From NCBI GenBank assembly GCA_903813345.2, contig CAIIXF020000010.1:1417169-1481168 (forward strand): a stretch of DNA of 64,000 bases. Direction: 5' to 3'. A program made the translations under genes and the position numbers. This stretch comes from Owenia fusiformis (taxonomy: Eukaryota; Annelida; Polychaeta; Sabellida; Oweniidae). Positions 1 to 21,315 of the stretch are shown piece after piece. Position 1 is the first letter of the stretch, and the number at the start of each line of letters is the position of its first letter. Under the pieces are notes generated by a model. That model was not told where the DNA came from. It saw only the letters and a list, made by a program, of their open reading frames with translations, and searched no databases.

Positions 1-232
1 AAAATGTGTTATCAATGATTTTCTTGTAATTTTGGATATAAATTGCGTTTTATTAACAATCCATAATCTTCCTTAAATATACCTTAAGTTCACTAATTCA
101 GCGTTTAAGAAAAAGATTTTATGTTTCAGGTCATGAATTCAAAACTAATGAGGTAAAACATGTAACTATGGTGTTATCTTGAACCATATTTTGTTTTCTC
201 ATTACCATGGTAACAACTAATTTGCTACATAC

Positions 233-742
233 CTTTTGAGCATTAAGCTTTCCCATTACCATGTCAACAAAGTCATCATCGCTGAGGGTAAGAGTACAAC
301 CAGCTTTAGCGCCCCCTTGTGGTGTCCCCTTATAGGCAGCACCATTGCCATTCTTTAGGTCTACCGCTGCAAGATGAAATAAGAGTCATATGTGAAATAT
401 TTCCAAAGCACAATTGGACTATAACCCGCTATAACAACAAGGTACACAATCAAACAAAATCATACATAAAACCACCTTAAAATTTACGATACATGCCTAC
501 AGTCTAGGCAATTCTGGAAAGGTTTGTCAGGAAATGTGCAAATAAGAAAAGTAAAAATTTCAGTGAAAAATGTGCAGTCATTCAAAAGTCAAATTCATTA
601 CAGACTTACTCCAAGTTTGGGTTTTGCCATCCTTTGTAATATTCCACTGGAAGATTGCTTTAACATTCTTGACCAAATTTGGGTTTGACTCGATACGTTT
701 AGCCATCTCTGCAAAGATTGGCTCACTTAACAAGCTATCTGC
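233..742 (-). CDS. HSD17B4: HSD17B4 exons 24-25: second, tandem SCP2 domain (3' exon missing)
   Basis: Exon 24 (610-742) encodes [20 protein letters not shown] and [14 protein letters not shown]. Exon 25 (233-366) encodes [20 protein letters not shown] and [20 protein letters not shown]. Boundaries and phases repeat those of exons 21 and 22, so a three-exon SCP2 block was duplicated. This second copy looks closer to the single vertebrate SCP2 domain. The expected AFMxGKLK exon and C-terminal targeting signal would lie before coordinate 1. Confidence 0.92.
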
Positions 743-3700
743 CTATAATATCAATTAGAAGCAATTTACTATTCAATATTTAAGTCTTGAATAATTCTTA
801 TACATTTTCATCTGTGGGTTCTGATTTCGCATCATATCAGTGAAGCTGATATGCACTTGATCATTTTAAAAACTAAAACTTGTACTCCCAATTGACCAAA
901 ATTATGTTTGGCAGTTTTTAAAATTTATTAGAACTGGTCATTTTCCAACCTAGTGTAATTGAGCTTAGACGGAAACGTTAAATAGACTATCCCATGGGGT
1001 AATTGGCATGCTTTTAAAGGGGAGTGCACATCTACATTTCATGCAATGTAAAAATCAACAAATAAACCCTTTTCTTATTTACCATAGCCTCTTTTCTTGT
1101 GGCCTCAAATATGGTGGATAGCTTTGCTGCCAGCATAATGTTGCCCTTGACCTTCAACTTGCCAGACATAAAGGCCTGAAACATCAATAAGCATAACATT
1201 AAAGTATGGGACACCTGTGTAAATGGAATACCCCTCGTACTCCTAAAAGGTGTTCCACTCTGGAGAGATTCCACATTCACAGGTTCATTTAACATTGTGG
1301 CAATGGGCCTTTTGTTCCATGTGTTCCACTTACAGAGGTGTTTCACTGGACAATTTCTATAGTATGTCTAATATATTTTAGTCGGTCTATTTATCAAGTA
1401 AATGCCATACTGAATAAATGGTCATGAACTTCAAGAATATTGAATGAATAAAAGTTGCTAAAAAAGACAGCATATTGTTGCCATATATAGCTATGGCATC
1501 TCAAAATAGAATGTCCTGCCGTCTCTTCCTCAATGATTTTTTCAAACAGTTATGATTTGATCTAATCAAATGAAAGCATGCACCTACCTTTTGGCCATTA
1601 AGTTTACCAGTCACAAGATCAACATAATCAGAGTCATCAACTGTAATTGTTACATCTGCTTTGCCCTTCTTAGGATCACCTTCATACAGTTCATTGTTCC
1701 CTTTCAGATCAAGCGCTGAAATATACAGATGAAAGTATTGATTACTGGTTGAAACACTCTTTTTCAGGCTCTACTTTGCTATTTCTAGCTAGCCCGTCTG
1801 CTGTTCTTTGTTATTCTGCTGATGTGTTCAAAAAGCTAGAACAATCTAATATGCATCACATTTTTTAATTTATTCAAGAATGAAAATTTAATTTTGAGTC
1901 ATTACATAAATAAGAATTTGATGTTAAGTTATTCAAAATGTTTTTTGATTTCTAGTAATTCAAGTAACTTACTCCATCTTCTCATTGGCTTCTTGTCCTT
2001 AGTGATGACAAATGTTAAGATGGAGTTCACTTGCTTAGCAACCTGGGGTTGCTCCTTCATCCTTGATCCCATTTCTTTAAATACAACATCACTTAGCAAC
2101 CCTTGTCCAGCCTGAATAGGAAAAAAGGTGTGTTATATACACTGGGCTCGTTTTGCATATTTTAAGCAGATTTTTGAAAGGTGGCGCAAAATCTATTTCA
2201 ATGAATCTTTTTAAAAAACTGACAGTCTCCTCATGTACATAGAATTCCATAGATCAAGTTTTACAATAATTATTAACTGACATATGTTGTTAATGTTACT
2301 TGAACTTACTGGAGCAGAGACAGGTCTAACATCAACACTATGGAGGTCAATATAAGCCCCTGATAGGCACACACTACCAGTCTCTGCAACCTAAATAAAA
2401 CAACATACATGTAGATATATACGATGGCATTCAATCAGATTCATACATCAATCAAACTATGTGGATAAGTTAAAATCACATAGGTAAGTTGTTTAAGTTT
2501 TAAATGTACTACTATTTAAAGTCATTTTATTCACATTAATTCTCTATTGTTAAAATATATTAGTGTAATTCTTGGCGTCTGTAGCAGCATAGTACTTGCA
2601 AAATCATCCCTCGTATTATATACAGTAGATAAAGTATGTACTATTCTACAATGTACAATATAAATATAGCAACTCTCAGCTGCATGGTCTGCCAAATCAT
2701 ACTCATCCAGTCTTATTTCAAGTTAGGGCTGATTTGAGAACACACCAAATGTCAATGCCTTCTATCATGGCCTACCTTTGTGTTAAAGTGTATCCTTGTC
2801 CCCTCTTGCCACATGTCAGTCTGTAGGGTCTGCCCTGGTAGGACAGGCTTGGCAAACCTCACCTATACAGGCATACATACATTGGGGTCAGCTTTAAGTA
2901 GCACTGGGAGGGGGTCTGGGGAAGGCATGAACCAGAATGTGGTTCAAACTCCAATTGCATGGAAAAGTTTAAGGTAGTTCCGCATTTTGACAAAAAAAGT
3001 TTAGGAAATGCCATTATCAGTTTGAAATTATCTGATAATCTTTAGGTAAATATATTTTTCCTGAAAAGGTAAATAACCACACAAAAATGTGAAAACTATT
3101 TTCTAATCTATTTCGTGAAATTTAAAAAAATTTCATCATGCAGAGCTACCTTAATAACCACAGCTAGGTCATGGGAATTCTTGCAAAGTAATAATTATAT
3201 TTCATGAGCATACATTAGAATACATGAGAAGTTCTGATGTAGATGTGCATATTATTTTTATATAGAAAGAACTCGTATCCCGGTGAATCTGTTCAAGAAA
3301 TATCATTATTGCTTTGCATCATACATGGTAGCATATAGTTAAGATAAACCAGCAAAATTCAACAATAATTCTCCATGAAGATCTTCAACTTGAATAATGT
3401 AAAATTGCTGGTTTATCTCAAAATTCAAAAACATATAAAAAGACTTACTGATTTTGATTTTGAGTGTTCCATTTTTGTGAGATTCGGTAGGATATATTTG
3501 AATGTATTATAATCCTTCTTAAAAGTTGAAAAACTGTGTACAGCCGTGTGTACTTTGTTATTAGACCAACATACCATTAAACTTTGTACAGTTCAACGCT
3601 ATTTATCATGTATTGCGAGATTACATGTGGAGATTTATGCTGTATTATTGGTCGCTTTATTTATATGAACTGCTCAATATCATAATTCAATAATTCCTTT

Positions 3701-6700
3701 CCAATTTTTCTGAGCTTAACAACATTATTTTTTGTGCTGGATAGTTCTTTTTGAAAAGAAAGATTCTTTGCAAATAATTTTTAAGAGTTACTATGATTTC
3801 TAATCTAGAATACCTTGCATAAAATGAAAAACATAAATCAAAATACAGTTTACATGTTTCAACTTTTTGCAAGGGCTTCACAGGAGTTTAAAAGAACCAT
3901 AATGCTTTAGAACCACAATGCTTACAGTATATTAGGTATGGTTTGACCTTTAGAAAACCCCAAGGCTATGATACAACTATTAAAGCAACTACTTTATAAA
4001 TGATAAAAATGATAAAAACGTTATTTTTAACAAGTGACATTAACACTCAAATAATAACCCAATATTTATGTCATATATTCTTAGTTGCCTCTCAACCTCT
4101 TTAGAAATTTCTTTTATTAAAAAGTGAAATATTTTCCAAACAAATAATGTGTTACAAAATATTCTCAAGAAATCTTTAAAGATTTACCTTGATGGCTTTA
4201 AATTTGGAGACATCGTTATTTGCAAATTTTTTCAGGACGTGTCTGGCAGCATAACCAAATGAGCAAAGACCATGCAAGATTGGCTCTTTGAAACCTGAAA
4301 TATAGTTTCATATCTTAGAAGTATTTGGAGAACAACAAAAATACAAAACATTAAGAATGATAAAATGCATTTCTTATTCTCATCAAAACTGATAATGTCC
4401 AAAATGTCACCTGATCTTGGCACTAGTATGCTCATGCATCTGTGAAGATTTCAAGTTGAACAAAAAAGACGTTTTTGAAAAAATTGATGATAAGATTTAT
4501 GCAGCACCCACATGCACCCAAACCCAGCAGCACAATACGATGACATTATACAGCAAAAAATGTGACAAGTTTGGTCAAAGTTGACATGCCTTATTTTGCA
4601 GCTTTGTGTGGATTGTATCTACTTGTGTACAATATGTACAATCATGGTTACAATAACTACAATAACTCACCACCCATTGCAGCAAAGCTAGGATCAATAT
4701 GTAGTGGGTTCCTGTCACCACTAAGTCTGTAGAGGGCTGCCTAGAAATACAAAAATAAACAAAATATATTGTGTTTTTCTGTGTATTTCATGGTAGAGGG
4801 GTTGGGTTATACCTGGTCAATGGTTGATAATACCTGGTCAATGGTTGAATATACCAGGTCAGTGGTTGATTATACCAGGTCAATGGTTGATAATAACTAG
4901 TCAATTGTTGAATATACAGTACCAGGTCAATGGTTGATTATACCAGGTCAATGGTTAATTATACCTGGTCAATGGTTGAATATACCTGGACAATGGTTGA
5001 TTATACCAGGCCAATGGTTGATTATACCTGGTCAATGGTTGATTATACCAAGTCAATGGTTGATTATACCTGGTCAATGGTTGATTATACCAGGTCAATA
5101 GTTGATTATACCTGGTCAATGGTTGAATATATCAGGTCAATGGTTGATTATACCTGGTCAATGGTTGATTATACCTGGTCAATGGTTGAATATACTAGGT
5201 CAATGGTTGATTATACCTGGTCAATGGAGAGATTATACCTGGTCAATGGTTGATTAAACATGGTCAAAGGTTACTATACCTGGTCAATGCTTGTTTTCTC
5301 TGACATGGTTGCATCTGGGGATCTCTTGGGGGGATTAACTGTAGGCTTGGCTTTACTTGAGCTTTTCTTGCCACCAAATCCTCCTGATCCAACGACAAAG
5401 GCCGCCATCTGATTGTAGGCGACTAACTCTCCCTTCTCATCATAGGTTTCAACTATGGTACGAAATAACAGTCAGAATATGAGATGTTTAATTAATACAG
5501 TAAGCTTTTGAGACAAAACTTGTGGACCGATTGGACAGGTGGATGTTTTTCATATATACTGCAATACAAACAATGCAGATGGAAGAATTGATTGCAATAG
5601 CTAGTAAAAACCTGCCATGCAACAATATAGGGAATGTTTGATGAGTAAGAATTGTGCAACTCCTACAGCATAAAGAACATGACAAACACAGATTCATAAC
5701 GCAAAAAGTGCATGATAGACTTAGAAGAAATTATTAAAACTATAATGTCCCTCTGCCCTGTTCTTCCCAATACCCACCACAGCAGACTCCAACCCCTCTT
5801 CAAATCTTTTCTAATGCTCATAATACGCTCATGGTGATTGCCACTTGAATATGAGACTTGGAGAGTTACTAGCATTCATCATAATGAATAATAAAAAATA
5901 TTTGCAATACTCACTGTCCTCAATGATCAACATGCCAGAGCCCTTGTCTAAGACGTCAGCAATACGAACATGTGATGTCAGAGTGCCCTCTGTTGGCAGA
6001 GGCTTATAGAGCTCCATGTACTGCTCACCATGGACAACCTGAAGTTTATAAAGATACAATGATTGGAATATTATTATTAAGCTTAATATACATTTTTCTA
6101 GCTCATTTACATTGTGCTATTATTTATGTTACTACAGTATATTAATTTTTACATTATAAATCTTTGATAAAAATGTAACAATATTCCTCATTTCATAAAC
6201 AGCGTAGCTACAGTTGAATTTATGTAAACAATTATCTTTTGTCTGTGGTTATCATTTATTCATATCAATTAATATTGAAGTATTAATATGTTAGGATATA
6301 ACAATCAAAAGCAAGCCTGAAATCCGGGGCCTGAAAGCTTTATTGCAGGTGCAAACGAATAGTAATTATACAAAGGTTTAACTGGATCTTATAATAAATT
6401 GTGTTTCTTATCAAAGCATAAATAAAATGACTTTAAAGGAGCATGTGTATAAATACTATCTAGTATATAGAAATAGAAATGAACTATTTATTAATTCTCC
6501 TCTAATATGACTGTCTTATCTTCTTGTTTCATGGGGATTTGTATATTTGTGCATAATAGGGAAGACGTGTTAAAGGAGCATGTGTATACACTATCTACTA
6601 TCTGGTATATAGAAATAGAAATGAAGTAATTGTCAATTCTCCTCATGTGACTGTTTTAGCTTCTTGTTTCATGGGGATGTTTATGTTTGTGCGTAATGGG

Positions 6701-9700
6701 GAAGATGTGTCTGATTTCTGTAAACATGATACATGTAAGATGCGTTATGAGGACATCATTCTATTGAACTGAACATTTTCTAATTGGAAGGAAAATGGAT
6801 TTAAATGAGGCTTAAAAACTAGATCAATGTCTCACAAAACACTGTCACATTAGATACATGGTAAGATACAATATGAGGACATAGTTTTGAATGGAACTAC
6901 ACAAATAACATCCTTACTTGTTACAATAACCCCAGTGTTGCCAATTAAGAGAACAAGCTTGGGAAATGGAAGCAAGAGAAATGTTAACTACGAGGCCTTT
7001 CTAATTAAAATGAAACACCTACCCTAGTTGGATCAATCACAATTCCTGATCCAGGGATACCTCCGCCAAAAACATCAAATGCGCACATGAGCGATGGTAT
7101 CACACCATATGTTGGTAAAACACTGAAATCTTCACTTCCTTCATATAAGAAGTTCAAATAATCTTCTTGTTGCGTGCTTACACCCACTGAAAATGGAAAA
7201 ATAAAAATATCACTGACCTTGAAAATTTCAGGACTCAGGATTCTGTAACCTAGGCCTGGGCTATGGTACGACATACCTTATAATAAGGGCAAAGGACAGC
7301 GCAAGAGGGAAAGAAACATTTAAAGCAGGAGACATCTATCTCCAGCATCCACATACCCTCGTGGGGTCCATTGGAACACCAGGTAGACCATTAGAGAGTG
7401 CGTCATAAACTGCCATCTGGGACGGGATCACCCCATATGTTGGTAAAACCGCAAAAGATTCGCTACCTTCATATAAACGATCCAGATAGTCTTCTTCCTT
7501 AGTTGAAACTCCCACTGAAAGCCATCAAAGCAATCTTTGTTATTTATAATGACGGTTTCGGTGAGAGTTCTTACTTATGTGAATGAAATGAAATGAGAAG
7601 CACAGGGCAGTTTCATGCACAGATTCAAGGAATAATCCCTCCATTCATAAGCATTGGCTTATCACTTATCACTTTGCTTATGCACAAAACTGAAGAGGGA
7701 CAAAAGGGGGAGTTAAAGAGACAGATATTAGGGCAAGGCTACCATTTCAATATTGATTCTAAAAATTGTTAATTTCACATAGAAGCGTTGAAATGGTAGT
7801 CTTTGTGTCATTATTTCTATGTTAAAGGAGTGTGATTGCTAATGGCACAAGATGAATGCACATGGACTGCATTAGACACTTTTGCCTCCACAAAACATTA
7901 GGGAGGTTAAGCTAGACAATTTGAAAAGAACTTGTGTGTGAAAGTGCAGACTTGTGGTCTTCTAGGGCTTTATTCTCCCTGTTTGTAATACTGGTATATA
8001 ACAGTCTTAAGATCTTTGGAAAATAGTTAAGGTCATAAAATTACACATACACATCCAAATTCTCTTGAACAAATGTGTATTTTAACCTCCCTATTACATA
8101 CAAATGAACATAAAGCCATATGGGAAATGTGTACCATAACTACTAGGGCCTAATACATGACTGCAAGAATACCTTCTCTGGGGTAACAGGTAAGCCAGTA
8201 GAGAAGTGAATCCTCATTTGTGCAATTGAAACTTGTGCCACAACTGCACTGTACGTGGGCAACACAGCGAAATCTTCATTCAGTTCAAATAGAAACTTCA
8301 TATGGTCATCTTGATTAGTACTAACTCCAACTGGAATCAATTTTTAAACCTCCATTTTGAACCTTTCGTATATATTAGGGATATACATGTAGCAATACTA
8401 TTATATAGCTGCAGCGTCTGTCACCTAGGCAACACAGCACTATAATACAACTACAATTGCAGCAAAACCTGTATTTCCAAAAACCTCTCTATATCTGAAC
8501 ACCTCTTAATCTGAACATTTTTTGCTTGGTCCCATTCTTAATCTGCAAGAGACTTCCATGTTAAAAAACTTGAAATGAGAACACTTGTGAAGCTGAACAC
8601 TTTTGCCAGCCTAAGTGGTGCTCAGATTACACAGATTTTACTGCACATATTTGTATAATGGGCCTGATGCATGGAGAACCATTAAATCACACACACATGT
8701 AGAAAATGAGGTCCCAATGTGACTATATTGGTCAGTAAAACATGTGTATGAGTGAAACAATTTATCAGTCAGTGGGTGTTAGAAGGCTGAAGTGTTCCAC
8801 TTACAGAGGTGTTCCACTTACACATGTGTTCCACTTACAGAGGTGTTCCACTTACAGAGGCATTCCACTTTAAAGAGGTGTTCCACTTACAGAGGTGTTC
8901 CACTTACAGAGGCGTTCCACTTTAAAGAGGTGTTCCACTTACAGAGGTGTTCCACTTACAGAGGTGTTCCACTTTACAGGTTTAACTGTACCTTTTTGAG
9001 GTGTACAGGTAAACCTTTTACACTACAAAGGTCATCCCCTCCCACCATGGGGAACAACAGAATCAGGCCAAGGTGGATTGGGAAGTGACTAGCGTATGTA
9101 GGGAATACAGTGAATTCTATGTCACCCTCATATAGGAATTTAAGGTAATCTTGGTGCTTTGTAGAGATCCCAACTAAAATGTTAAACTGTAACTATGGAA
9201 ACACATATAAATTAAGAGGTACGTTGTACATACTTGCTGCTCAAAAATATCCAAGACTACTGTACAACGAAGAATACAGAAAGCTTAAAACAGAAGTATT
9301 ATTTCTGCATTCTTCCTTGTACTTAAGAATATTATAGTACACAGTTTGTTCCAATATTGGAGTGAGATCCAAAGAAAATAATCAAACTTCTCTATAATAT
9401 TTCCTATCTCCTGCTCTATAGTCTATATGACCTAAGGCTAATATTTTCTTTGGGAACCTAGACAATAGCTAGATAGACTTAATCTTTAAGTACAATCATT
9501 AAGTACAATCACTATGCACAATCATTATGTACAACTCCACTGATCGTTTTAAAAATTAAATATCCAATGAAATGAAAACCGGCAAATTTTAAATCAATGA
9601 TTTTCTTTTTCTATCACTGCTAATTCTTTTTTTCTATATCATATTACTAAGTACTAAAATTAGTTTTAGATAAGTATTACAGTATTTTTTATGAAGATGA

Positions 9701-12700
9701 GGTCGGAAATGAGAATGGATTTTATGAAATGCAAAAAGTCTGAAACTAGAAGCAGGAGGAAAGTCCATGTACATGTATTAACATTCCTTCACTTATTAAG
9801 ACCTAATAAAATTGTGACCATTGGAGGCCATTTGGTGATTTGATACGCAATCAATGTTCTTACCTCCAAGATTGTACAGGATTGACTCTTTGTTCGTGTA
9901 TGTCCATTTGGCAGGAGGGAATTTAGCTTCTAGGGCTTTTTGCTGAAATGAAATAAATGACACAATTTAGCTGATGAGATATACATAAATTGCATATACA
10001 TTTAGGTTTTTTTAAATGACTCCCTTAATTTACTTAACATTTTGAAGATTATATATCAGATTCTGAAATGAAAAAAGAATCAAACTGCACTATATACAAG
10101 TATATACAGGGTGGGACGTTTTTATTGGCCCACCCTGTATATGATCTGACTCATGTCTGACTTTACCCAATGAAACACCTTACAGAAAGTACACACCACA
10201 TTGATTTCAGAGTCTGCAGCAATGGTATGTGGCATTATATTTGCGCTTGCATTGTTGGTCTCAACTCCTCCTTCTACTTCACTTATGGCAGCCATCAAGT
10301 GTGTCATGCCCTCTACAACATAATAAATATTAGTTATTTATACGGTAGGTTTAGTTGCGTTGTATTTTGACAAAATTCAGCAACAAAAGATCTACACAGG
10401 CACAATTTTTTTTAGAAGAAACTTTTTCATCAAATGGTGAAGGAAATAATTTTCCAATATTCTGCAATATTTCTGAAGAAATAAAGACATCAAAAGACAC
10501 TTTTTTCATCAACTTCTGGCTCAAGTTTATGCAGAGTTTACTTTACATCACTTATAAACATGGAAAGTACCTGTTATTGAAGTAGGATGGTTGGATTCTG
10601 TAAAATCAACAATCTTCTCCCAGTTTTCTCTCACTGAAATGACCAAATAATATATGATACATTCAGATAGTTCAGATTTAATTGTATTTTCTTAACATAT
10701 TAATGTGGAGATGTACATCAGAAAAAGGATCTAGGTATTTGCTAGATACTACATACCTAGGGAAGTATTTGTATGGAAGTCAATGGGAAAGTGAGTGAGC
10801 TATATCCACCGATATTGCCTGATGGATTACCCCGATATAGCCTGCTTACCTCATTTTGATATTAGATTTCTTCAATAATCATAACAACATGATGTCATGT
10901 TTCATTTCTATCAAATTCTACTCGCACGCAGATGTGTGATGTCATTGATACAAAGTAGCCATGGGAATAAAGGTATGTAATACATCAGTTATGTCACTAT
11001 GACGTGAAATATGCATTTGTTCTTGCCCAAATATAGAGGCTCCCAAGGTCGGCCAATATTGGGAGAACTCAGGCATATTTCATGTCAGAGTGACATAAAC
11101 TCTAAAGAACCAATTGAAAGCATGAAAATTAGTAATTTTAAAATAAAACCATTTCACATAAGACGTTGGTAAAGTGTATTACAATTTTCTTTTAAAGCCA
11201 TTTAAATTATTCGTAAACATAAACAATGAAACTACAAATATCACGCCCGGTGATCGTGAATATGGGACGGAGGGGGGGAGCAGGCAATTTCTGCTAGGAA
11301 ATTCAACAAATCTTGAAGATTTATTTTTTCAAGAAAAAGTTTACTATTGAATTGCTAAATGGATAGGCGCACGGTATGGTAGAATATGTTAGGTTTTCTG
11401 GGATTTTTTCTGAAACGATACGCATCTAAAGTATGAGATCTATTAAAAAAGGCGCAAGGCCATCAACAGGCACAAATCAACGTTTTTGCTATAAATCAAG
11501 CAACAATGGTCTGGACGACCTGTAATAAATACTTGTAAGTGATGTTATCATAACTAAGTTAATGTCATTGCTGAATTTATAAAATAAGTTTCCATATGTG
11601 AAATAAAAAATAATCGAAAATAATGAATTTGGGACGGAGGGGGGGAGGGGACGGAGGGGGGGAGCAATATGTATATAAGACATGATTAGAGATGTTTCGC
11701 GACTTTAAGTCCTTTTACTCCAAATGTCCCCATTTTTCAGTCTCCAGGGGTATATCATCCAGTTTCTTACTAAGTTAATGAGTTCATTTTTCAAATACAA
11801 GAATTCGTGTGAAGTTGTTTCACTTTATAGAATTATTACTCCCCCCCTCCGTCCCCTCTCCCCCCTCCGTCCCATTTTAATTATTTTCAATTATTTTTTA
11901 TTTTACGTATGGAAACTTATTTTATAAATTCAGCAATGACATTAATTTAGTTATGATGACATCACTTACAAGTATTTATTACAGGTCGTGTAGTCCATTG
12001 TTGCTTGATTTATAGCAAAAACGTTGATTTGTGCCTGTTGATGGCCTTGCGCCTTTTTTAATAGATCTCATACTTTAGATGCGTATCGTTTCAGAAAAAA
12101 TCCCAGAAAACCTAACATATTTTACCATACCGTGCGCCTATCCATTTAGCAATTCAATAATAAACTTTTTCTTGAAAAAATAAATCTTCAAGATTTGTTG
12201 AATTTCCTAGCAGAAATTGCCTGCTCCCCCCCTCCGTCCCATATTCACGATCACCGGGCGTGAATATGAACTTTGGTTGGTAATCACTTGTAAATGAGTC
12301 ATACTCTAAACATTTTGAGTTATCTTATCAGATAGCACATATTCAATTCAAGGCTCTTTTGAACCAATAATAATGAACAATTATTTACACACACATTTAC
12401 ATATGTCATGAATGTAATGTTCTAGATTTTGACATGACTATTTTGTCATATATAAAAGACTAGAATACTGAATGAAGGTCACTTGAACTGATTATAACCA
12501 AGCCTTTTGCTTCCACAATGTTCACAAAAAGCATCATTGATATTAAGGCTAAAATACGCAAAAATCCACACTTTGTGTTATATATCAATGCAAATCTTAC
12601 CTGCTTCAGGTGTGAATGCCTGGTTCTTTTTGCGCACCACAACACCCTTGGACTTCTCATATCGCACTGGAAGAGATAAATACACATCATATAAGAGTAA

Positions 12701-15700
12701 GATTACACAATTATTTTTGATGTTCTAGTTAGATATACTGTACTTGGGCATTAGTAATCTTTCATTCATTAAGACAGCATTCCTACAAGATGTGTAGCTT
12801 CAAGTTCAAAATTTGAAAATTGTAGTTTTCGAAATGAGTGAAAATACACTGTAAGCCAAAATTAGTTAAAATAAATTCAAATCCACAAGTTTACCACTTT
12901 GTCCAAACACAATTCGCTTTCCACTGGACATAGTCCAATGAAGCAACCTTTATACCACTCCACCATTTGAAAAAATGGGATCACATAGTGATAAAAAGCT
13001 GAGTTTTCTATAAAAACAAGGCAAACAAAATGCATAGACTCATCACATGAGCCAAAAACCACAAAACCCCAGATTAGAATATTATAATGAGACTTACACT
13101 TGGACATCCAACCAGCTCCGCATTCAAATATTCCACCAGTCTCTGAGCACGAGTCATGGCACAGCCAGGCAACCAATGGGGCAACAAACTCAGGCTTAAT
13201 CTGGTCAACCAATTCTGGGAAAATAAAACCCTTTACATGTGAATGTCAAAATAAGCAAATGCAACACAATCAACATACAGTTAGTTGTACAGTTTGATGT
13301 TTATCATCACATATTTTATCAGTATGTAGGGCGATTTAAGCAAATGAAACAATTATATTTTATATAATTACTTATAATGTATTAAAAGTTATAATAAAAT
13401 TTTCATCGTCTTTTATAATGACTACAGTTGAATCTAAGATTTTTTAAAAGGCTACAGCCAAAAGCATCTGGATGGTATGTACATTACAACTTAAAGGAAT
13501 ATTCCTTGCCAGACCCTTTCTCTCTTGATATGGTAGCTATAATCATATATATAGTTTCCATATTTAGCAAAACATGGGAAAATGTTTTAATATGGTCAAT
13601 ATTGATCATTTAAAAATCTAGTGCTTATTTCCAGTGAGCTGCCATCTTTTAAGATTTCTTGCAGGAAGTGATGTCATCAACTCTCAACTTCTATATCCTT
13701 GCCCATAACAGTATAGGAAAGTAGCACAAAATCACTTTTAGACAAGTGATCATTACTTTCTGTGCAAAAATATTTTCAGGGCTTGTCAACTTAGAATAAA
13801 AGAAGAGATTTTCAAAAGGATTAAATAAGATACAAAGTTGAAAAAGAATATTTAGCTGGTTTTCTAATTCTTAATAGGTCCTCACCTAATGCTATATGCA
13901 AAGTTGAGAGTCGATGACATCACTTCCTGTGTGAAATTTTAAAAGATGGCAGCTTACTGGAATTAAGCATCACATTTCTAAGTGATCAAATTTGACCATA
14001 TCAAAACATTTTTTGCGTGTTTTAATAAACATGGCAAGCACATATATGGTTATAGCTACCATATGAGGAGAGAGATGATTTGGCAAGGAATGTTCCTTTA
14101 AGTCATTTATCTTCCATACCTATCATGCTATAATTACTACCGTAACTATAAGGTATATGCTATTTAAGGAGAAGTGGAGTAAAGATAGAGGGCAGAAGAG
14201 ATACCTTGAGGCCACACAGTCTGTGTAAGACGGGAGCCAGCAGTAGGTGCAAGTGCATTACTTTGTATATTGTACTTTTTGCCCTCGATGGCTAGGGTGT
14301 GACTCAGTCCCACTAGGCCCATCTTGGCTGCAAAATACAAGACACACTTTAATTTAATACTATACAAAACACACTTTAACTAAATACTATACAAGAAATG
14401 TCCCTACAAATTTATTGTCTGTTTAGCAATGCCTGTCTGTTCATTCAAAAATCTCTGTGGTCAACTCTTTTGTTTTGTCCTTTTACAACATTTCTTTCAT
14501 TTTGACAGGTATTTTTATATTTTGCGGGTACTTAAGTTAGCAAAATAGGGCAATAATTAACATGCAAAATTGTCACTACACGTAGGTTGCAGTTAAAAAA
14601 GTTAACCATTTGTTACAGAGGCTGAATGCCAGCACCAAACACAGAGGTGAGAGCAGCTCACAAGAACCAATGGCTGTATAACAATTAACATGTCACCAAA
14701 GTGATATAAAAACAAGTCATATGATCCTTTTTTCAATCTAACTTAACAGACAATTTAACTTGTAAGGACAAAAAACATATACATTTGCGAGGGGATTGAG
14801 TGGGGAAGTGCAAGTACAAGATACAATACACTACCTTTGGGCCATAATTTAGGGGCAGTGGCAGTCATTCTGGTTCCTGCCCTAGGGGCTATGGCATTAC
14901 TCTTTATATTGTATTTACGCCCCTCTATGGCCAATGTATGTGAGAGCCCAATGGCCCCACTCTTTGCTAAAATACTATGATGTCTATTATGTCAATTTAC
15001 TACACTCCACATCTTAATTGTTCACTGAGAAGTATTAATATACATATACAGTGAAACCTGTATAATGGTACCTCTAATAATGTTCCACTTGGGAGGTTTT
15101 CCATTTATAGAGGTCCAGTTAACATTAAGTCAGTTGGTCTGGGGACACTGCAAAGTCTTCCAATTACAGAGGTGTTTCACTTAACAGATTTCACTTTACT
15201 CATTCAAGTTAAACTTCTCCACAAAAGAGTGAATACCAAACTTAATAAACCTGATTTCTCTATATTACTTCCAAAATTTGTTAAAGAGGCTCTATGCCAT
15301 AGGAAAGCACAATCAAGACCACTCTGGACTTTTTTGCATATTGAGTTTCACCACATATTCACCCATCTACTTACCAAAGAAAAAGTCCCACATCCCCCTC
15401 TTTCAGTGTAAATTTTGCGATTGTGCTGGCCAATCTAATTATTTTTGCGGAAATTAATTCAATCTGAAGTTTGAATATACCGGGAAAGTCCTCCTGTTAT
15501 CTGATTGGTCGTTGAGTCTGTTTATCATGAACCTGATAGGGTGTCTGGTTCAAGGCGCTTGTGTGACTCAATGGGGATCCCCCTCGCTAGCCGAGGAATC
15601 GATTGTGTTTAATTCTGGAGATTGGTTGTTCTGTTGATTATTTCAATATTTCGACAATAATATACCCATATAGTTATTTTCAAGATATATCCATGTTATG

Positions 15701-18700
15701 TGAGATATTATATGAGCAATAACAATAGGACATCATTGATTGTCTTGGGGAGAAACCTATGGTATAGTGCATCTTTAAATTACAACATTATGTTGAAATT
15801 TCGCATACTTGAGATTATTAATCTCCAAATTAATAGTAAAATGATTAATGGACAATGAGTAAATAATAAAAGGAAAGATATGAATGAGTCAACATTACCT
15901 GCACTGTAGTTGGCCTGGCCAAAGTTGCCATAGATACCAGCAGTGGATGTTGTCATTATAATCCTAGAAAATAAAAGATGAAAATATTTATAGAGGTTTT
16001 GGGGAGTCATTTGACTTACAGATGTGTATATACAGTTAAGCATTCCATACTGGCCATTGTCGAGAGTCAATATTAATACATTTATCTATAAGAATTCAAT
16101 ACACTATAAATGTGTTTTGACTGGTATGTGTCTTGACTGGTAATGCACTTAGATATTGCTTTTTCTTGCTAAGTTCCATTACAACTTTTAGTCCTTTCCC
16201 TTTGGCACTAGTGCTTATATATTTCCATTATCAACAATTCTTGAAATGTCCACATATACCCAGGTTTGTTAGGAAACTGTTTGTGGGATTGTATTATTAG
16301 AAAGGGATTTAAAAATGCACTGTGCCAGCTTTATTATTTACCTGCCAAACTTCTGTTTCTTCATGTGTGGCCAAGCTGCTCTGGTGACCATGAAGGAACC
16401 TCTTAAGTGGACCCGATGGATCAAATCTGAAATATACATGTAAGGCAAAAATGTGTAAAAAGCTAGGTTACATATTGGAAATTAGTATGTTCATTACAAT
16501 ATTACCGAATGGCATTATCCGCATAAACTATATATGACCGAGGTAAACTGAAAGGTGAGAATGGGCTTTCCTCTTTTTACCAAATCAATCATGAATTTTT
16601 ATCTGAATTCACTGCATAAATATCAATGACTGTCATTAAAACACATACTCAAGATCTGTACAGGTAGAACCTCCATATCTGTATTATGAGAACAATCCCT
16701 TCAACTTGGGGATGGAGTTTCAACTATTCAGATGATAGCTATTTAAACATCAAACTAGCATCCATGCTCTTAAACACAATACATGTACATGTACATAATC
16801 CCAAAGAGTGTTGTGCTTTTCCCAATGACCTATGCATATAATGCATTTTTTTCCTTGTTTTAATGAACTAATATCCTTTAATTAAAACTTTCAAGCACAA
16901 AAAACTCCAGATTTTTCTCCTTTCTTTTCATTCAAACTTTTTCACAGAAAAAAACTTGTATTGAATTGGTGCTAAATGTATAAATGGCAAGAAGCCTGAT
17001 ATTCAAATGTTGTGTCCTTAACAGCTAAGGTCTCAAACTTAACAGAACACTTTTTATCAGTTTGACACAGTTTGAACTTGGGACCTTATCAAAATCAATG
17101 TACATGTATGCCAACCATTTGTGATAAAAGACTGTTCATCCTTTGAGGGTATAAAATAATTTACTGACTGTTAAACCATGAGTACCTATAATGCACATAG
17201 TTTTGTTCTGAGTAGAATGAGAATTTTTCAGGGAGTAAAAACAATTTTGTTAGTAAATGATGAGTTTTGGGCACAGAAAGCAAATGTTATATAGTACATA
17301 AAATCATCATTATCCGAAATGATCCTTACCAATACGTGTGAACTTTTAGACACAATCCCTGACAGTTATTTGTTTGTATTTAGTTACTGAATCTAACCTT
17401 TGACCTAACTGTTAACTGTACAATTTGCTGAACAGGCAGATCAAAGTTCTTGAGATTGAATATCATCTAATTTGTGTTTCTCATACAACATGCAACAACA
17501 ATAACATCTATTGGAACTCATGAATTCACTGCAATCTGCCCTGTGGCTGGTTCGCATTTTTGATTCAGTTTATTTTGATCATGCATTCGCATATGTTAGT
17601 CATCTTTGAATTTTCATATTTAGATGGCAGAACGATCCATAATCATACAAGAGTACTTTTATCTTACCCATCATTCATTTACGAATTCATAAAGCACCGT
17701 TTTGAACAGCATATTAAGCAACAGAATATATTCTTGTTTGGTAGGCCTATGCAAGCAAACCTGTGCCTGACTAGCTAATTGTTGCACATTAGTTTTCAGA
17801 AAGTAGAAATAGAATCATAGAGCATAGAAATATAGTGATATATCAATCCTCTTTGCTTTAAACATCGATTATGGATTATATTTGGAAATGAATTTTTCAC
17901 TTACCCCAATCCAAATCACTAGTCCTTGCAAATGAGCGATCTCTCAGAATACCTGCATTGTTGATCACAATGTCTGAAACAAAAATAAAATGCAATATAC
18001 AATATGCAATATGCATTTTCTTGTATTAAGAAACAAATCCTAGGACATATAGAATATCCCTGAAATAATATTTTATTAACTAATAATTGGGGATTATTTG
18101 ATATAATTGTGGTTTTCAAATACCCGAGTTTTGAGTAAATAATTGGGGTTAGCACTGACAAATTAGGATTTCTCCCAATTTAAATCGAGACTTGACAGGT
18201 GAGATACCTCTCTCCATCATCACATCTCTTGTTTCCACTAGCAACATGCTCTGATTTTATTAGTCTCATCTGATGGGAGGAATTATAACTGTCATGAAGA
18301 CCTAATGTCCATGTATCATATTATAATATGTTATATTAATAGCCTCAAGTATTATCAATTAGAGTCTTTGTTAGATAAGACAAGACTGCTACAGACTCTA
18401 CCACAAAATGATAGTTTAATACATACCTATTCTACCAAAGTTATCTAATGCTGTTTTCACCAGTTTTTCCCCATCTTCCACAGAGTCTAAAGATGGAAGA
18501 ACACATTATGAACGTGCTGTTTATGCTTCATGTATGCAGATACATATGTATTTTACAAGACTAGAGGTTACAATACACTTAATGTTTTAATTATAACTTT
18601 CAGTATGTTTGCAATAAATTCTACATGTACATGCCCATATAAGGCTTTCATACCATAATTGGCAACTGCTTTGCCTCCTTTGGCCTTTATTTGATCCACT

Positions 18701-21315
18701 ACAACATCTGCTGGTCTTGAAGTACCTCCTCCATCTCCAGTCATTGAACCTCCCAGGTCATTTACTAGAAACAAAATAAAACCAATATAAATAGTTTTTT
18801 ATTCATTAGAGAATGAGAGATAGCAAAACACTTTTCTTGTGTAAGCTTTTATAGCATAACATGCGATTTGGAATCAAAATTGATATTTACAACACGTAAC
18901 AGGTACAAACCACATCAGTTTACTAGGCTGTGTTGAGCAGAATGCGGTAGTTTAGCTATATACATGTATACCACTGAGCAAACTCAAAAAGCTTATTGAG
19001 TGTACTCCACTTACCAACAACTGAGGCTCCCCTCTCACCAAATAGAAGTGCATACTCTCTTCCCAGGCCTAAAATAGAGAGCAGTGAACAGTTAAAGTGC
19101 AGTCAGTGTCGCAATATGGGAGATCAGCACTTGCTCATGTATCAAGCAACATTCACAGGAGTTCACAGACATGTAACCAGGCATACGTAAAGGTACGCAG
19201 TTGCCTACCCTAATAATTATGGAGCAAACAATGTATACAATAAATAGTGCCCCATTACAGTCTGATATAGCTCAGAATGCACCATTTAAGGTTTACAATC
19301 AAAAATTTTCCAGAGGGCCATGCCCCGGACCCCCTAGTTTTGATTGGCCTTCAGCCTAGCGTATCTGCTATCAGAAATCTGTTTGCGCTGCAGGTTCATA
19401 CACGTTCTCAAGAAATCTCATATGTAAATAAGAGACGACATAGACTAAATTAAGTATAGTGGGCAATGTTTAGAAGCTCTTGGATTATTGTTCATGTTGA
19501 TTTGAGCTTTAAAGTGCTGTAATGAAACTGAGATACTGGTAATGATATGTCATAAGACCATGGGCATTCAAGGGTGACATGCATGTGTACTGAAGACGTC
19601 AAAATGACTTGGTGGACAGCTTCGGTATCTTCCAGAAAGTATTTAGTTGACCGCAGAATTGTGGCTCCCATTTTGAAATATCTAACTATCATGACTTTTG
19701 TACATGTACACTATATGTATCAATTGGGAGTAAAGAATCACACATACATGGGCGTAGCTCTATTTTTCTAAGAAGTACGCCACCACCACAGGAACAACAG
19801 TTGAGTGAACCAAAAAATGAGCATTCAGGGGGTCTGGGGCTTCTCCCCCAGGAAAATTTTGGAATTTAGTTGTATTTAGAGTGAATTTGAAACCATCTGG
19901 TACGCCTGTGCGTACCCAGCCCATGACATACCAGAACTTGAATTTTGTGATTTTTTTCAATATTTACCATAGTGACACCATAACGTATCATAACTTCCGG
20001 AATAACAAGCCTTACGGAAAAATTTTGGGAATATTTTCACTTCGTTTACATTTCTTGTATAACTGTACTTATTGTTGATCTGACGGAAAGATAAGCTGAT
20101 GTAGTTACACTGGAGTTCGTTTACTACCATTTGGAAGGCACGTGAGGGTCCCATTCATCAGGTAACACTCATATGTCGATGTTATGTTCTTGCTATTTTT
20201 AACAGTTAACCAGGAGTAAGTCACGATAGAATTTCTACTGCATTTCTACTGACGGTGAACACCGCCTCTAATGCGTTGGATTGTTATGTGGCCAACACGA
20301 TCCTCAGAGACACAATCCAATGCATTAGAGGCGGTGTTCACCGTCTATCAGAGACCCAGAGGGTGCATGAATGCACCTTATCCCGTTCCCGGACTATGGT
20401 CCTGTGAACATCTCAATCTTTTGCCTGTGCGATTACAACATGGGAGAATTTTTTACTGATCTTACACTTCAGATACCTACTTCAATAGATTCCTTGGTAA
20501 TTTAGCATTCTTTTCGTGTAGTTGAATCCACAATTGTCTGGGTTTATCGGCAGAACGAAGACATTTTCGTTTTTGATCGCAATATTTGCGTGTAGCATTT
20601 AACTTATTTCAACCGTCAAATTCCTCCATATTGGTACTTCCAGGCTACATCCGGGACAGCCAAAGGGGGGATTCCCCTTTTAAATCCAACCACCATTTTG
20701 AAAAGTGATGGAATCTCTCTCGATGAAAAAGAGAAATGTTCCCGTTCTGCCGATATACCCAGACAATCGGCGGTTCCAATATATTAGAAGTTACATCTTG
20801 AGTTCTATAATGCATTGAGGTAGGTATCTTAAGTGTAAGGGGCGTAGATAATTCTCCCAAGTTGTAATCGTACAGGCAAATGAATGCGCTCAGTGCAGGA
20901 CTATAGTCCGGGAACGGGATAAGAATGCACCTACATTTTTAGAAGCCCAATTTTGCAGTGTCAAAGAATCCATGTACTTGTTATAACCTCTGTGAAGTAC
21001 AGTATACCAGGTGAATAAACAGGACATGGAAATATATTGCCTTGTCACTGTACTCAGTTATAATATACTGCACTTTGACCAATGTGAACTCTGTTCACAG
21101 CCTGATCAGTGATCTCCGAAATAATTTTATTTTTCGTGCCATTAGAAATATGTAAATTGCAAAAAAAGTAAACAAAATCAGAAATTGATTAGTATCCCTA
21201 CTAGTGCAGAAATAGTTTGAACATTGTTTGCAAGTCATAATGTAACTTTAAACTCACCCCCACCGGCTCCAGTAACCAAAACAACGCGACCATCGAATCT
21301 TAGAGGAGCAGCCAT
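233..21315 (-). CDS. HSD17B4: HSD17B4, peroxisomal multifunctional enzyme type 2 (3' end off window)
   Basis: Spliced gene encoding D-3-hydroxyacyl-CoA dehydrogenase, 2-enoyl-CoA hydratase-2 and SCP2 lipid-carrier domains, which act in peroxisomal beta-oxidation of branched and very-long-chain acyl-CoAs and bile-acid intermediates. Exons in coding order: 21258-21315, 19015-19068, 18654-18764, 18427-18486, 17905-17973, 16342-16426, 15899-15963, 8a 14835-14966 or 8b 14205-14327, 13098-13214, 12601-12666, 10571-10633, 10197-10312, 9864-9942, one of four exon 14 copies (8992-9173, 8173-8330, 7357-7514, 7023-7186), 5915-6038, 5280-5452, 4671-4740, 4188-4294, 2776-2862, 2310-2390, 1973-2111, 1588-1715, 1083-1175, 610-742, 233-366. 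All junctions are GT/AG and all phases match. With 8b and 14d this gives 833 codons to the window edge; human HSD17B4 is 736 aa. The start [20 protein letters not shown] matches the family N-terminus. The final exon and peroxisomal targeting signal are off window. Confidence 0.97.
1083..2111 (-). CDS. HSD17B4: HSD17B4 exons 21-23: first SCP2 domain
   Basis: Exon 21 (1973-2111) encodes [20 protein letters not shown], exon 22 (1588-1715) encodes [20 protein letters not shown] and [20 protein letters not shown], and exon 23 (1083-1175) encodes [20 protein letters not shown]. This is a complete SCP2 lipid-binding fold. Exon 23 ends at an ATG-GTAAATAAG donor in phase 0. If that donor were not used, reading would run on to a stop at 1032, giving a one-SCP2 protein. 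Confidence 0.93.
2310..2862 (-). CDS. HSD17B4: HSD17B4 exons 19-20: end of hydratase domain
   Basis: Exon 19 (2776-2862) encodes [20 protein letters not shown] and then GTRIHFNTK. Exon 20 (2310-2390) encodes [16 protein letters not shown] followed by a short linker. Both have phase-0 boundaries. They match the last strands of the hot-dog fold of family members. Confidence 0.94.
2969..3154. mobile_element. Short TTAA-flanked MITE
   Basis: TIRs TTAAGGTAGTTCCGCAT and ATGCAGAGCTACCTTAA are imperfect inverted copies flanked by TTAA. The length is about 186 bp with no coding capacity. It lies in the HSD17B4 intron between exons 18 and 19. Confidence 0.75.
4188..6038 (-). CDS. HSD17B4: HSD17B4 exons 15-18: hydratase-2 core and active site
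   Basis: Exon 15 (5915-6038) encodes [15 protein letters not shown] and [14 protein letters not shown]. Exon 16 (5280-5452) encodes [12 protein letters not shown], then a short Ser/Lys linker to TSIDQ. Exon 17 (4671-4740) carries the hydratase-2 signature [20 protein letters not shown], holding the catalytic Asp and His. Exon 18 (4188-4294) encodes [20 protein letters not shown]. The 3' end of exon 16 abuts and resembles the minisatellite that follows in the intron. Confidence 0.95.
4802..5279. repeat. 21-bp minisatellite made of a splice-donor-like unit
   Basis: About 22 units of roughly 21 bp, plus-strand core TGGTTGATTATACCTGGTCAA. On the gene strand each unit reads like the end of exon 16 plus its donor (TTGACCAG then GTATAA). 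The array directly adjoins the true donor at 5279/5280. Some units have CTG in place of CAG before GTATAA. The open frame through it is only a 7-residue repeat and not a gene. Confidence 0.93.
5735..5850 (+). mobile_element. 3'-end fragment of the LINE family seen at 35.3-36.1 kb
   Basis: Shared blocks with 35867-36005 include TGTCCCTCTG, CCAACCCCTCTTCAA against CCACCCCTCTTCAA, and ATGGTGATT.GCACTTGAATATG. It is a diverged solo 3' fragment within HSD17B4 intron 15. Confidence 0.75.
6436..6711. repeat. Two-copy tandem repeat of about 138 bp
   Basis: Units 6436-6572 and 6573-6711 both begin AAAGGAGCATGTGTATA, share TATATAGAAATAGAAATGAA, and end GGGGAAGATGTGT or GGGAAGACGTGT. It lies in the HSD17B4 intron between exons 14d and 15. 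Confidence 0.85.
7023..7186 (-). CDS. HSD17B4: HSD17B4 alternative exon 14d
   Basis: This 164-nt exon, phase 1 in and phase 0 out, reads [40 protein letters not shown] and [15 protein letters not shown]. Of the four copies it is closest in length and sequence to the single vertebrate exon segment. It joins to exon 15 as [19 protein letters not shown]. Confidence 0.92.
7357..7514 (-). CDS. HSD17B4: HSD17B4 alternative exon 14c
   Basis: This 158-nt exon, phase 1 in and phase 0 out, reads [40 protein letters not shown] and [13 protein letters not shown]. It is close to 14d and to the vertebrate sequence. The donor is GTATGT. The upstream ORF context does not reach 60 codons, so this exon is visible only by homology to its neighbours. 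Confidence 0.9.
8173..8330 (-). CDS. HSD17B4: HSD17B4 alternative exon 14b
   Basis: This 158-nt exon, phase 1 in and phase 0 out, reads [35 protein letters not shown] and then [10 protein letters not shown]. It keeps the LPTY core but has FELNE in place of YEGSE and a distinct middle helix. Acceptor and donor (GTATTC) are intact. It has no stops. Confidence 0.85.
8791..8980. repeat. 17-18 bp minisatellite carrying GTAAGT on the gene strand
   Basis: About eleven units of GTGTTCCACTTACAGAG with variants (TTTAAAGAG, GCATTCC). On the minus strand most units contain CTGTAAGTGG, a consensus 5' splice site. The array starts about 12 nt past the donor of alternative exon 14a. Scattered single copies of the same motif lie near 1245-1345 and 15080-15190, so this is a dispersed family. 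Confidence 0.92.
8992..9173 (-). CDS. HSD17B4: HSD17B4 alternative exon 14a
   Basis: This 182-nt exon, phase 1 in and phase 0 out, reads [20 protein letters not shown] then [12 protein letters not shown] and a divergent hydrophobic tail ending GLPVHLKK. It is the farthest upstream and longest of four homologous copies. The core (FLYEG, FPTY) matches the family's FIYEG and LPTF positions in the hydratase-2 N-terminal hot-dog half. Its donor GTACAG is followed directly by a minisatellite full of GTAAGT sequences. Confidence 0.85.
9864..13214 (-). CDS. HSD17B4: HSD17B4 exons 9-13: end of SDR domain and linker to hydratase
   Basis: Exon 9 (13098-13214) reads [20 protein letters not shown] and [13 protein letters not shown], the conserved SDR C-terminal part. 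Exon 10 (12601-12666) continues [16 protein letters not shown]. Exon 11 (10571-10633) has [19 protein letters not shown]. Exon 12 (10197-10312) is a poorly conserved, Ser/Ala-rich linker; its donor is the least certain in the gene (a GTGTGT site, chosen because exon 13 needs phase 0). Exon 13 (9864-9942) begins the hydratase domain with [20 protein letters not shown]. Confidence 0.9.
10104..10140. mobile_element. Minimal paired-TIR remnant (CAGGGTGGG type)
   Basis: The inverted ends ATACAGGGTGGG and CCCACCCTGTAT are separated by only 13 nt, with TA on both sides. The same end sequence starts at 53100. It lies 57 nt after the chosen exon 12 donor. Confidence 0.7.
11241..12263. mobile_element. 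Foldback element with arms of about 425 bp
   Basis: The left arm begins TCACGCCCGGTGATCGTGAA and the right arm ends with its inverse. The arms (about 11241-11667 and 11838-12263) are nearly identical inverted copies around a spacer of about 170 bp, and carry runs like GGGACGGAGGGGGGG. A possible 3-bp ATA duplication flanks it. It lies in the intron between HSD17B4 exons 10 and 11. Part of its arm recurs at 63922-64000. Confidence 0.92.
13491..14101. mobile_element. TTAA-flanked foldback MITE, 611 bp
   Basis: The ends TTAAAGGAATATTCCTTGCC and its inverse lie at 13491 and 14101 with TTAA at both boundaries. Arms of about 210 bp share GATATGGTAGCTATAATCAT and AAGATGGCAG. It sits between HSD17B4 exons 8b and 9. 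A half copy is at 44695-44810. Confidence 0.88.
14205..14327 (-). CDS. HSD17B4: HSD17B4 alternative exon 8b (canonical-like)
   Basis: This is a 123-nt exon, phase 1 at both ends, reading [20 protein letters not shown], then [19 protein letters not shown]. It is closer to the vertebrate SDR sequence (AGSRMTQTV) than exon 8a is, so it is probably the default. Both exon 8 copies have lengths divisible by three, so including either, both or neither keeps the frame. Exclusive use would have to be enforced by something other than frame. Confidence 0.92.
14835..14966 (-). CDS. HSD17B4: HSD17B4 alternative exon 8a
   Basis: This is a 132-nt exon, phase 1 at both ends. It reads [20 protein letters not shown], then [19 protein letters not shown] and PKLWPK. 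It supplies the catalytic Lys of YxxxK and the loop after it that lines the substrate pocket. It is clearly homologous to exon 8b about 500 bp downstream, but differs at the end (ATAPKLWPK against TQTVWPQ). It has a clean acceptor and a GTAGTG donor. Either it is an alternative exon or a decaying duplicate; no frameshift or stop is present. Confidence 0.88.
15281..15778. mobile_element. TTAA-flanked MITE, 498 bp (copy 1)
   Basis: TIRs are TTAAAGAGGCTCTATGCCAT and an inverse ending GTGCATCTTTAA, with TTAA at both edges. A second copy of identical length (498 bp), about 88-90% alike by eye, is at 47849-48346 in gene B. It lies in the HSD17B4 intron between exons 7 and 8a. Confidence 0.92.
15899..21315 (-). 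CDS. HSD17B4: HSD17B4 exons 1-7: SDR dehydrogenase, cofactor and catalytic half
   Basis: Exon 1 carries the glycine-rich Rossmann motif TGAGGGLG, completed in exon 2. Exon 3 gives VNDLGG, where the family binds the adenosine ribose. Exon 5 encodes [11 protein letters not shown], the NNAG structural motif. Exon 7 encodes the catalytic stretch [17 protein letters not shown] with the active-site Tyr; the paired Lys comes from exon 8. The residues match the vertebrate D-specific SDR domain closely. Intron 1 (19069-21257) is the longest of this block and holds two inverted-repeat structures. Confidence 0.96.
19302..19860. mobile_element. Possible inverted-repeat element in HSD17B4 intron 1
   Basis: AAAATTTTCCAGAGGGCCAT at the left and CCCCCAGGAAAATTTT at the right are imperfect inverted copies with matching GGACCCCCT/AGGGGGTC blocks. 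Termini and target duplication are unclear. Confidence 0.5.
20251..20345. repeat. Near-perfect 34-nt hairpin
   Basis: The arms GACGGTGAACACCGCCTCTA at 20251-20284 and its inverse at 20312-20345 are separated by 27 nt. One mismatch is visible (GCGTT against CATTG). It lies in HSD17B4 intron 1, just before another foldback. Confidence 0.9.
20372..20938. mobile_element. Foldback element, about 0.57 kb
   Basis: TGCACC.TATCCCGTTCCCGG at the left and the inverse at 20905-20938 are paired. Inner blocks CAATTGTCTGGGTTTATCGG and GCCGATATACCCAGACAATC also pair. It lies in intron 1 of HSD17B4. Confidence 0.82.

What the first reader, a model, noticed from the sequence alone, without database searches (positions are those of the whole stretch)
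7023..9173. Four tandem copies of one HSD17B4 exon, with exclusivity enforced by reading frame
Exons 14a-14d are homologous, all start in phase 1 and end in phase 0 (182, 158, 158 and 164 nt, each 3n+2). Using exactly one keeps frame into exon 15; using two breaks it. All four have intact splice sites and no stops. They encode the N-terminal part of the hydratase-2 fold, where acyl-CoA substrates are bound, and differ mostly in the middle helix and tail. This looks like a mutually exclusive exon cassette that tunes substrate range of a peroxisomal enzyme. I know of no such cluster described in HSD17B4.
Basis: partly seen in the sequence, partly recalled or inferred. Interest (0 to 1): 0.9.

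Follow-up and report, generated by a model that had tools for sequence, protein, structure and literature searches.

The report
Swappable exons in peroxisomal enzyme gene
An animal gene for a fatty-acid-degrading peroxisomal enzyme appears to carry four interchangeable versions of one exon and two of another, so one gene could make up to eight versions of the enzyme; this is read from DNA only, and no RNA was examined.

Summary
Four homologous copies of one HSD17B4 (MFE-2) exon lie at 7023-9173, minus strand: 182, 158, 158 and 164 nt, GT-AG sites, no stop, phase 1 to 0. Of 16 subsets of the copies, only the four single-exon choices stay open from exon 13 to exon 15; none, 2, 3 or 4 copies hit a stop. 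All 8 combinations of the 26-position gene model are open, 861-872 residues ending in AKL. Likeliest: a mutually exclusive exon cluster whose errors are removed by frameshift and decay, a known mechanism that my searches did not find reported in this gene. Splicing is untested. Branch tests reject neutrality for 14d, only nominally for 14a, and not for 14b or 14c. Substrate tuning is inferred.

The parts
8992..9173 (-). HSD17B4 exon 14a, 182 nt, phase 1 to 0; longest variable tail
   Evidence: not matched alone by PF22622 at E 0.001, its isoform matched at 101 bits
8173..8330 (-). HSD17B4 exon 14b, 158 nt; weakest donor and acceptor scores of the four
7357..7514 (-). HSD17B4 exon 14c, 158 nt
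7023..7186 (-). HSD17B4 exon 14d, 164 nt; strongest acceptor and best tblastn score of the four against the (recalled) human sequence
9864..9942 (-). exon 13, upstream of the cluster, ends in phase 1
5915..6038 (-). exon 15, downstream of the cluster, starts in phase 0
14835..14966 (-). exon 8a, 132 nt, phase 1 to 1: first copy of the duplicated dehydrogenase exon
14205..14327 (-). exon 8b, 123 nt, phase 1 to 1: second copy of the duplicated dehydrogenase exon
1..21315 (-). HSD17B4 gene from the ATG (21315-21313) to the window start; the last coding exon lies just outside, in L001 (G000:C10), ending in AKL and stop
8784..8991 (-). minisatellite beside the 14a donor (approximate limits), carrying 8 perfect GTAAGT hexamers on the transcript strand; a role in splicing is not shown

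Best explanation
This is a cluster of four mutually exclusive exons in a single-locus HSD17B4/MFE-2 gene. Each copy encodes the same segment (human residues about 351-403) of the first hot-dog half of the hydratase-2 domain. One copy is spliced between exon 13 and exon 15. Because each copy is 3n+2 and off-frame readings hit stops, transcripts with none, two, three or all four copies carry a premature stop and are expected to be destroyed by nonsense-mediated decay, so only single-copy mRNAs give protein. What picks the copy is unknown; trans-acting splicing factors acting on sites of unequal strength are the likeliest. A second pair, 8a/8b, swaps the dehydrogenase segment that starts at the catalytic-lysine position and runs along the substrate cavity; its exclusivity would rest on the fold, not on frame. 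Shown: anatomy, homology, frame logic, complete open gene model. Inferred: junction use, decay, and change of acyl-CoA range.
For: Four homologous adjacent exons with matching phases and GT-AG sites. Only 4 of 16 subsets are open, the single-exon ones. All 8 full-length combinations of 8a/b and 14a-d are open and end in AKL. Constraint across copies: one-ratio omega 0.075, 2dlnL 63 against omega 1 on all branches; making a and b, or a, b and c, neutral costs 7.3 or 4.9 lnL; in the 5 of 6 pairs tested, amino-acid differences are fewer than random substitution gives (four of these pairs over the first 28 codons only). One such locus found in the own genome. The MXE criteria and the frame-shift mechanism come from PMC5740500 passages. 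The hydratase-2 double hot dog changed to fit bulky enoyl-CoA (PMC2698920 passages). Exon 8 covers K168, I180 and hinge residues 167/171 and 189/190 at the substrate cavity (PMC3538638 passages; numbering, alignments).
Against: Omega = 1 is not rejected for 14b (2dlnL 0.30) or 14c (0.87); for 14a the rejection (4.98) is nominal and would not survive correction for four tests. Making b and c neutral fits slightly better than one ratio (by 0.7 lnL), and making a and c neutral costs only 2.0. 14a alone has no Pfam match at E 0.001. No docking/selector RNA pairing signal: on the summed energy 29 of 60 and 58 of 60 shuffles did as well or better, on the weakest arm 45 and 58 of 60. Introns are 170 to 984 nt, so steric hindrance is not available; all sites are GT-AG, so splice-site incompatibility is not apparent. 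PMC5740500 itself warns that many similar neighbouring exons are not spliced exclusively.
Confidence: 0.72

Rival explanations
1. Only one or two copies (d, and perhaps a) are used; the others, above all 14b and 14c, are decaying relics of tandem exon duplication that happen to stay open.
For: Branch tests do not reject omega 1 for b and c, alone or together; for a the rejection is only nominal. 14b has the weakest donor and acceptor of the cluster, 4.1 and 4.2 against means of 7.7 and 7.5 for the other exons of the gene.
Against: Simulated neutral decay, substitutions only and started from 14d, keeps the frame open with both splice dinucleotides in about 3% of cases at 1.09 substitutions per codon and 9% at 0.65, the levels fitted for b and c with omega 1 on all branches; the fits with only b and c neutral give somewhat lower levels, 0.92 and 0.55, which would make survival somewhat likelier. 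Length differences between copies are all multiples of 3. In the b-c pair the amino-acid differences (12 in the first 28 codons) are below random (mean 18.6). b and c alone still match PF22622.
Confidence: 0.19
2. The exons are ordinary cassette exons that can be combined or skipped, with no exclusivity.
For: Exons 8a and 8b together, or both skipped, stay in frame, so exclusivity there is not forced by frame.
Against: For exon 14 every non-single combination is stopped. Each copy covers the same segment of a known domain, so tandem inclusion would disrupt the fold (inference).
Confidence: 0.05
3. The copies come from assembly error, mixed haplotypes or a neighbouring paralogous gene.
For: None found.
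Against: Copies differ at 18 of 53 (c-d) to 30 of 50 (a-b, a-c) aligned residues, far more than haplotypes; synonymous divergence of the two pairs computed, c-d and 8a-8b, is saturated; the protein search of the own genome found only this locus, the next match being E 1.96 with a stop (withheld stretches cannot be seen); one full gene with a single set of other exons surrounds them.
Confidence: 0.02

Closest known systems
Mutually exclusive exon clusters (as in PMC5740500, passages; Dscam, PKM and sodium-channel genes recalled)
   Same: Tandem homologous exons, same phases, similar length, one needed for an open frame; frame shift plus decay is a described control for them, and a cluster of four (CD55) is mentioned there.
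   Different: Found here in HSD17B4, where my searches show no such report; a second two-copy set in the other catalytic domain of the same enzyme; junctions not yet observed.
HSD17B4 / peroxisomal multifunctional enzyme type 2 (human 1s9c and 1zbq, fly 3oml)
   Same: Dehydrogenase, hydratase-2 and SCP2 domains in order, AKL end.
   Different: Two SCP2 domains and two duplicated-exon sets. That the human form has one SCP2 domain is recalled.
Docking-site/selector MXE systems (Dscam exon 6 type, recalled; PMC6071210 seen in the search listing and abstract start only)
   Same: Arrays of alternative exons of which one is used.
   Different: No competing base-pairing signal found in the two layouts tested.

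Membership tests
Mutually exclusive exon cluster | Adjacent internal exons with sequence similarity | tested here: met
   E 2e-20 to 9e-7 between the copies
Mutually exclusive exon cluster | Same reading frame, lengths equal or differing by multiples of 3 (up to 60 nt in the PMC5740500 prediction) | tested here: met
   182, 158, 158, 164 nt; largest difference 24 nt
Mutually exclusive exon cluster | Compatible splice sites, no in-frame stop | tested here: met
Mutually exclusive exon cluster | Junction reads that join each copy to the flanking exons past the other copies | not testable with these tools
   No RNA data available
Mutually exclusive exon cluster | Joint inclusion absent, or causing a frame shift and premature stop | tested here: met
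   For exon 14, all 11 multi-copy subsets and the skip are stopped; sequence only. For 8a/8b this is not met by frame: both together stay open
Docking/selector RNA-structure MXE | One docking site able to pair with a selector at each exon | tested here: inconclusive
   No excess over shuffles in two layouts, 60 shuffles each; no related species for covariation
HSD17B4 / MFE-2 | Dehydrogenase, hydratase-2 and SCP2 domains and a peroxisomal AKL-type end | tested here: met
   PF00106, PF22622, PF01575, two PF02036 stretches in the 8b-14a isoform; AKL end (the meaning of AKL is recalled)

The most novel reading that the evidence does not exclude
Both catalytic halves of one bifunctional peroxisomal enzyme are switched by alternative exons, 2 x 4, and the two choices are coordinated, so one gene yields up to eight matched hydratase/dehydrogenase pairs for different acyl-CoA classes: an isoform code for beta-oxidation substrate range, instead of separate paralogous genes.
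Probability: 0.3. Interest if true: 0.75.

Novelty: new member of a known kind. Interest (0 to 1): 0.58.

Why it matters
Mutually exclusive exons are best known from channels, receptors and muscle proteins (recalled). Here they would sit in a core lipid-metabolic enzyme, in segments at or near the substrate sites of both catalytic domains (8a/8b; exon 14 by inference). If used, this is a natural set of swapped segments in the enzyme defective in human D-bifunctional protein deficiency. Each version could be expressed and assayed to learn how the hydratase-2 and dehydrogenase sites choose chain length or sterol side chains. It also gives a four-copy test case for error removal by frame.

Tried and rejected
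Docking/selector pairing: 30-nt windows of the flanking intron against introns a-b, b-c and c-d, in two layouts, showed no signal (summed energy: 29 of 60 and 58 of 60 shuffles as good or better; weakest arm: 45 and 58 of 60). The 170-nt intron c-d folds no better than shuffles (z -0.92). Steric hindrance and U2/U12 incompatibility were set aside on intron lengths and on the donor and acceptor sequences; no U12 model was run. Haplotype, paralogue or retrocopy: one locus only in the own genome, next match E 1.96. Hidden further copies: tblastn of all 30 exon peptides over the gene found, beyond weak matches, only exons 8, 14 and the SCP2 exons (21-23 against 24-26).

Dating by tree: 8 rows, 56 columns, no starred branch, so it says nothing on when the copies arose. 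Naming the organism: no COX1 match, though that family rang in 8 of 14 control genomes; no match to bindin or to a mollusc haemocyanin family, where none of the 14 controls rang, so those absences prove nothing. No tRNA match (ARAGORN, bacterial code) and no Rfam match at the gathering score in the window.

Comparison with sister species was not tried: the genome collections open to me are prokaryotic, viral or plasmid, and metagenome scans were capped at 0. Of the papers listed, four of five were not opened; the fifth (PMC10483729) mentions Hsd17b4 only for gene expression in zokor liver (passages). The two papers listed were not opened.

Full report
WHAT IS THERE. The window lies at G000:C10:1417169-1481168 of an unnamed 498-Mb genome, an animal by gene structure. 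On its minus strand is an HSD17B4 (MFE-2) gene. I built a model of 26 coding-exon positions from the ATG at 21315 to a stop just outside the window (exon 26 in L001). Domains by Pfam, scanned on the 8b-14a isoform, are short-chain dehydrogenase, MFE-2 hydratase-2 N domain, MaoC and two SCP2 stretches. The protein ends in AKL, a peroxisomal signal (recalled). The dehydrogenase part matches rat 1gz6 and human 1zbq at 1e-136 or better. The hydratase part matches human 1s9c at 2.5e-30.

THE FOUR COPIES. Exon 14 exists as a 8992-9173, b 8173-8330, c 7357-7514 and d 7023-7186: 182, 158, 158 and 164 nt, all 3n+2. Each has an AG acceptor and GT donor, phase 1 in and phase 0 out, and no stop. Peptide tblastn between copies gives E 2e-20 (c-d) to 9e-7 (a-b). 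Amino-acid identity is 35 of 53 for c-d and 20 to 23 of 50 for the other five pairs. The N-terminal half, up to the P-T-Y motif, is the most alike; the tail after it differs in sequence and length. Pfam PF22622 matches all four isoforms, at 121.5 (d), 123.3 (c), 114.5 (b) and 101.3 (a) bits; much of that score comes from the shared flanks. Exon peptides alone match for d (33.0), c (32.8) and b (27.2 bits, cut-off 27), but not for a at E 0.001.

FRAME LOGIC. I spliced all 16 subsets of the four copies between exons 13 and 15. Open: the 4 single choices. Stopped: the skip, 6 pairs, 4 triples and the quadruple. So the rule 'exactly one' holds at sequence level. It removes errors; it does not choose the exon. 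The step from stop to mRNA decay is inferred.

SPLICE SITES. Scored leave-one-out on 23 donors and 23 acceptors of the other exons of the same gene, donors average 7.7 (sd 2.1) and acceptors 7.5 (sd 3.4). For a, b, c and d the donors score 4.8, 4.1, 10.1, 9.9 and the acceptors 7.1, 4.2, 4.8, 12.7. None is below the minimum of the other exons (3.6 and 0.1). The sites look usable, d looks strongest and b weakest.

SELECTION. Synonymous sites are saturated in c-d and in 8a-8b. A codon likelihood fit on 50 aligned codons gives omega 0.075, against omega 1 on all branches at 2dlnL 63. By branch, omega 1 is rejected for d (2dlnL 10.4) and nominally for a (4.98, which would not survive correction for four tests), not for b (0.30) or c (0.87). 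The branch lengths are at saturation and move much between fits, so these numbers are rough. Against the one-ratio fit, neutrality costs 2.5 lnL for a, 2.1 for d, 7.3 for a and b, 4.9 for a, b and c, 2.0 for a and c, 0.1 for c; it gains 0.9 for b and 0.7 for b and c (topology ab|cd, the best of three). Against decay of b and c: with substitutions alone, at the amounts fitted under omega 1 everywhere, a copy keeps an open frame and both splice dinucleotides in about 3% (b) and 9% (c) of simulations. In 5 of the 6 pairs (c-d whole; a-d, b-d, a-b, b-c over the first 28, best-kept codons; a-c not tested) amino-acid changes are fewer than uniform random placement gives: 0 of 5000 for c-d, a-d and b-d, fraction 0.0002 for b-c, 0.0022 for a-b. 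I conclude that d is constrained, a very likely, and that b and c probably are but this is not separately shown.

Exon 8 of the dehydrogenase domain is also duplicated: 8a 14835-14966 (132 nt) and 8b 14205-14327 (123 nt), phase 1 to 1, 65% identical, E 2e-16. Both start with the alanine-lysine that aligns to human A167-K168 (numbering). [quoted passage not shown] Here both together, or neither, stay in frame, so exclusivity would rest on the fold. 8b is the closer copy to human and rat (472.7 against 458.7 bits for 1zbq). All 8 combinations of 8a/b with 14a-d translate through (862 to 873 symbols with the stop, so 861 to 872 residues). A tblastn of all 30 exon peptides against the gene found no other duplicated exon except the SCP2 set.

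MECHANISM. Introns around the copies are 690, 661, 658, 170 and 984 nt: too long for steric hindrance. All sites are GT-AG. Docking/selector pairing in two layouts gave no signal. What remains is frame-based removal of errors plus unknown selection of the copy. PMC5740500 (passages) describes frame shift and decay as one of the controls of human exclusive exons. It also says that many similar neighbouring exons are not exclusively spliced, so RNA is needed. PMC13247117 (passages) finds C. elegans exclusive exons to be all triplet in the sense of the length difference between alternatives, which these copies also meet. PMC7954323 (abstract and passages) reports that such exons tend to keep the fold and alter residues at or near functional sites, which fits here. 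[quoted passage not shown] That exon 14 changes the acyl pocket is an inference from this; the catalytic residues lie in the other half (exon 17, recalled), shared by all isoforms.

NOVELTY. Searches of the PMC library for HSD17B4 or MFE-2 with mutually exclusive exons, duplicated exons or mutually exclusive splicing found no report of such a cluster: 5 papers, one opened, the others judged by title and abstract start, 0 papers, 0 papers, 2 papers, not opened, unrelated by title. Broad searches listed 15 of 346, 12 of 22 and 10 of 2,418 papers, none with this enzyme in the title. Preprints and subscription papers are not covered. I file this as a new member of a known kind: exclusive exon clusters are well known, also with four copies (CD55); this enzyme, and a second set in the partner domain, are new as far as I can see.

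LIMITS. No RNA, no sister species and no structure of the isoforms were available.

Noticed in passing
window 8784-8991: A 17-nt minisatellite beside the 14a donor gives 8 perfect GTAAGT hexamers on the transcript strand within 193 nt of the donor (none in the four other introns around the cluster). They could act as decoy donors for 14a; reading on into them meets a TAA 15 nt past the donor. It belongs to a dispersed repeat: 16 exact matches to a 36-base piece listed in the genome, this one included, some overlapping.
   Followed up: partly
window 1-2111 and L001: The gene carries two tandem SCP2 domains (exons 21-23 and 24-26) that differ clearly from each other (43% to 74% identity by exon), where human HSD17B4 has one (recalled).
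   Followed up: partly
window 4747-5318: Tandem array of a 21-nt unit in the intron after exon 16, roughly 20 units.
   Followed up: no
window 11241-11662 and 11842-12263: Near-perfect inverted repeat, two 422-nt arms 95% complementary with 179 nt between, in the intron between exons 10 and 11; a foldback element by look.
   Followed up: no
window 57352-63342 (+): 1996-aa open frame of TPR repeats (21 PF13424 stretches) with a DUF294 match; shorter frames at 30718-33449 and 52162-53088 look related by eye, as if copies of one gene.
   Followed up: partly
window 24629-26401 (-): 590-aa uninterrupted frame without Pfam match at E 0.001; by eye it recalls the X domain of phosphoinositide phospholipase C (recalled, not tested).
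   Followed up: partly
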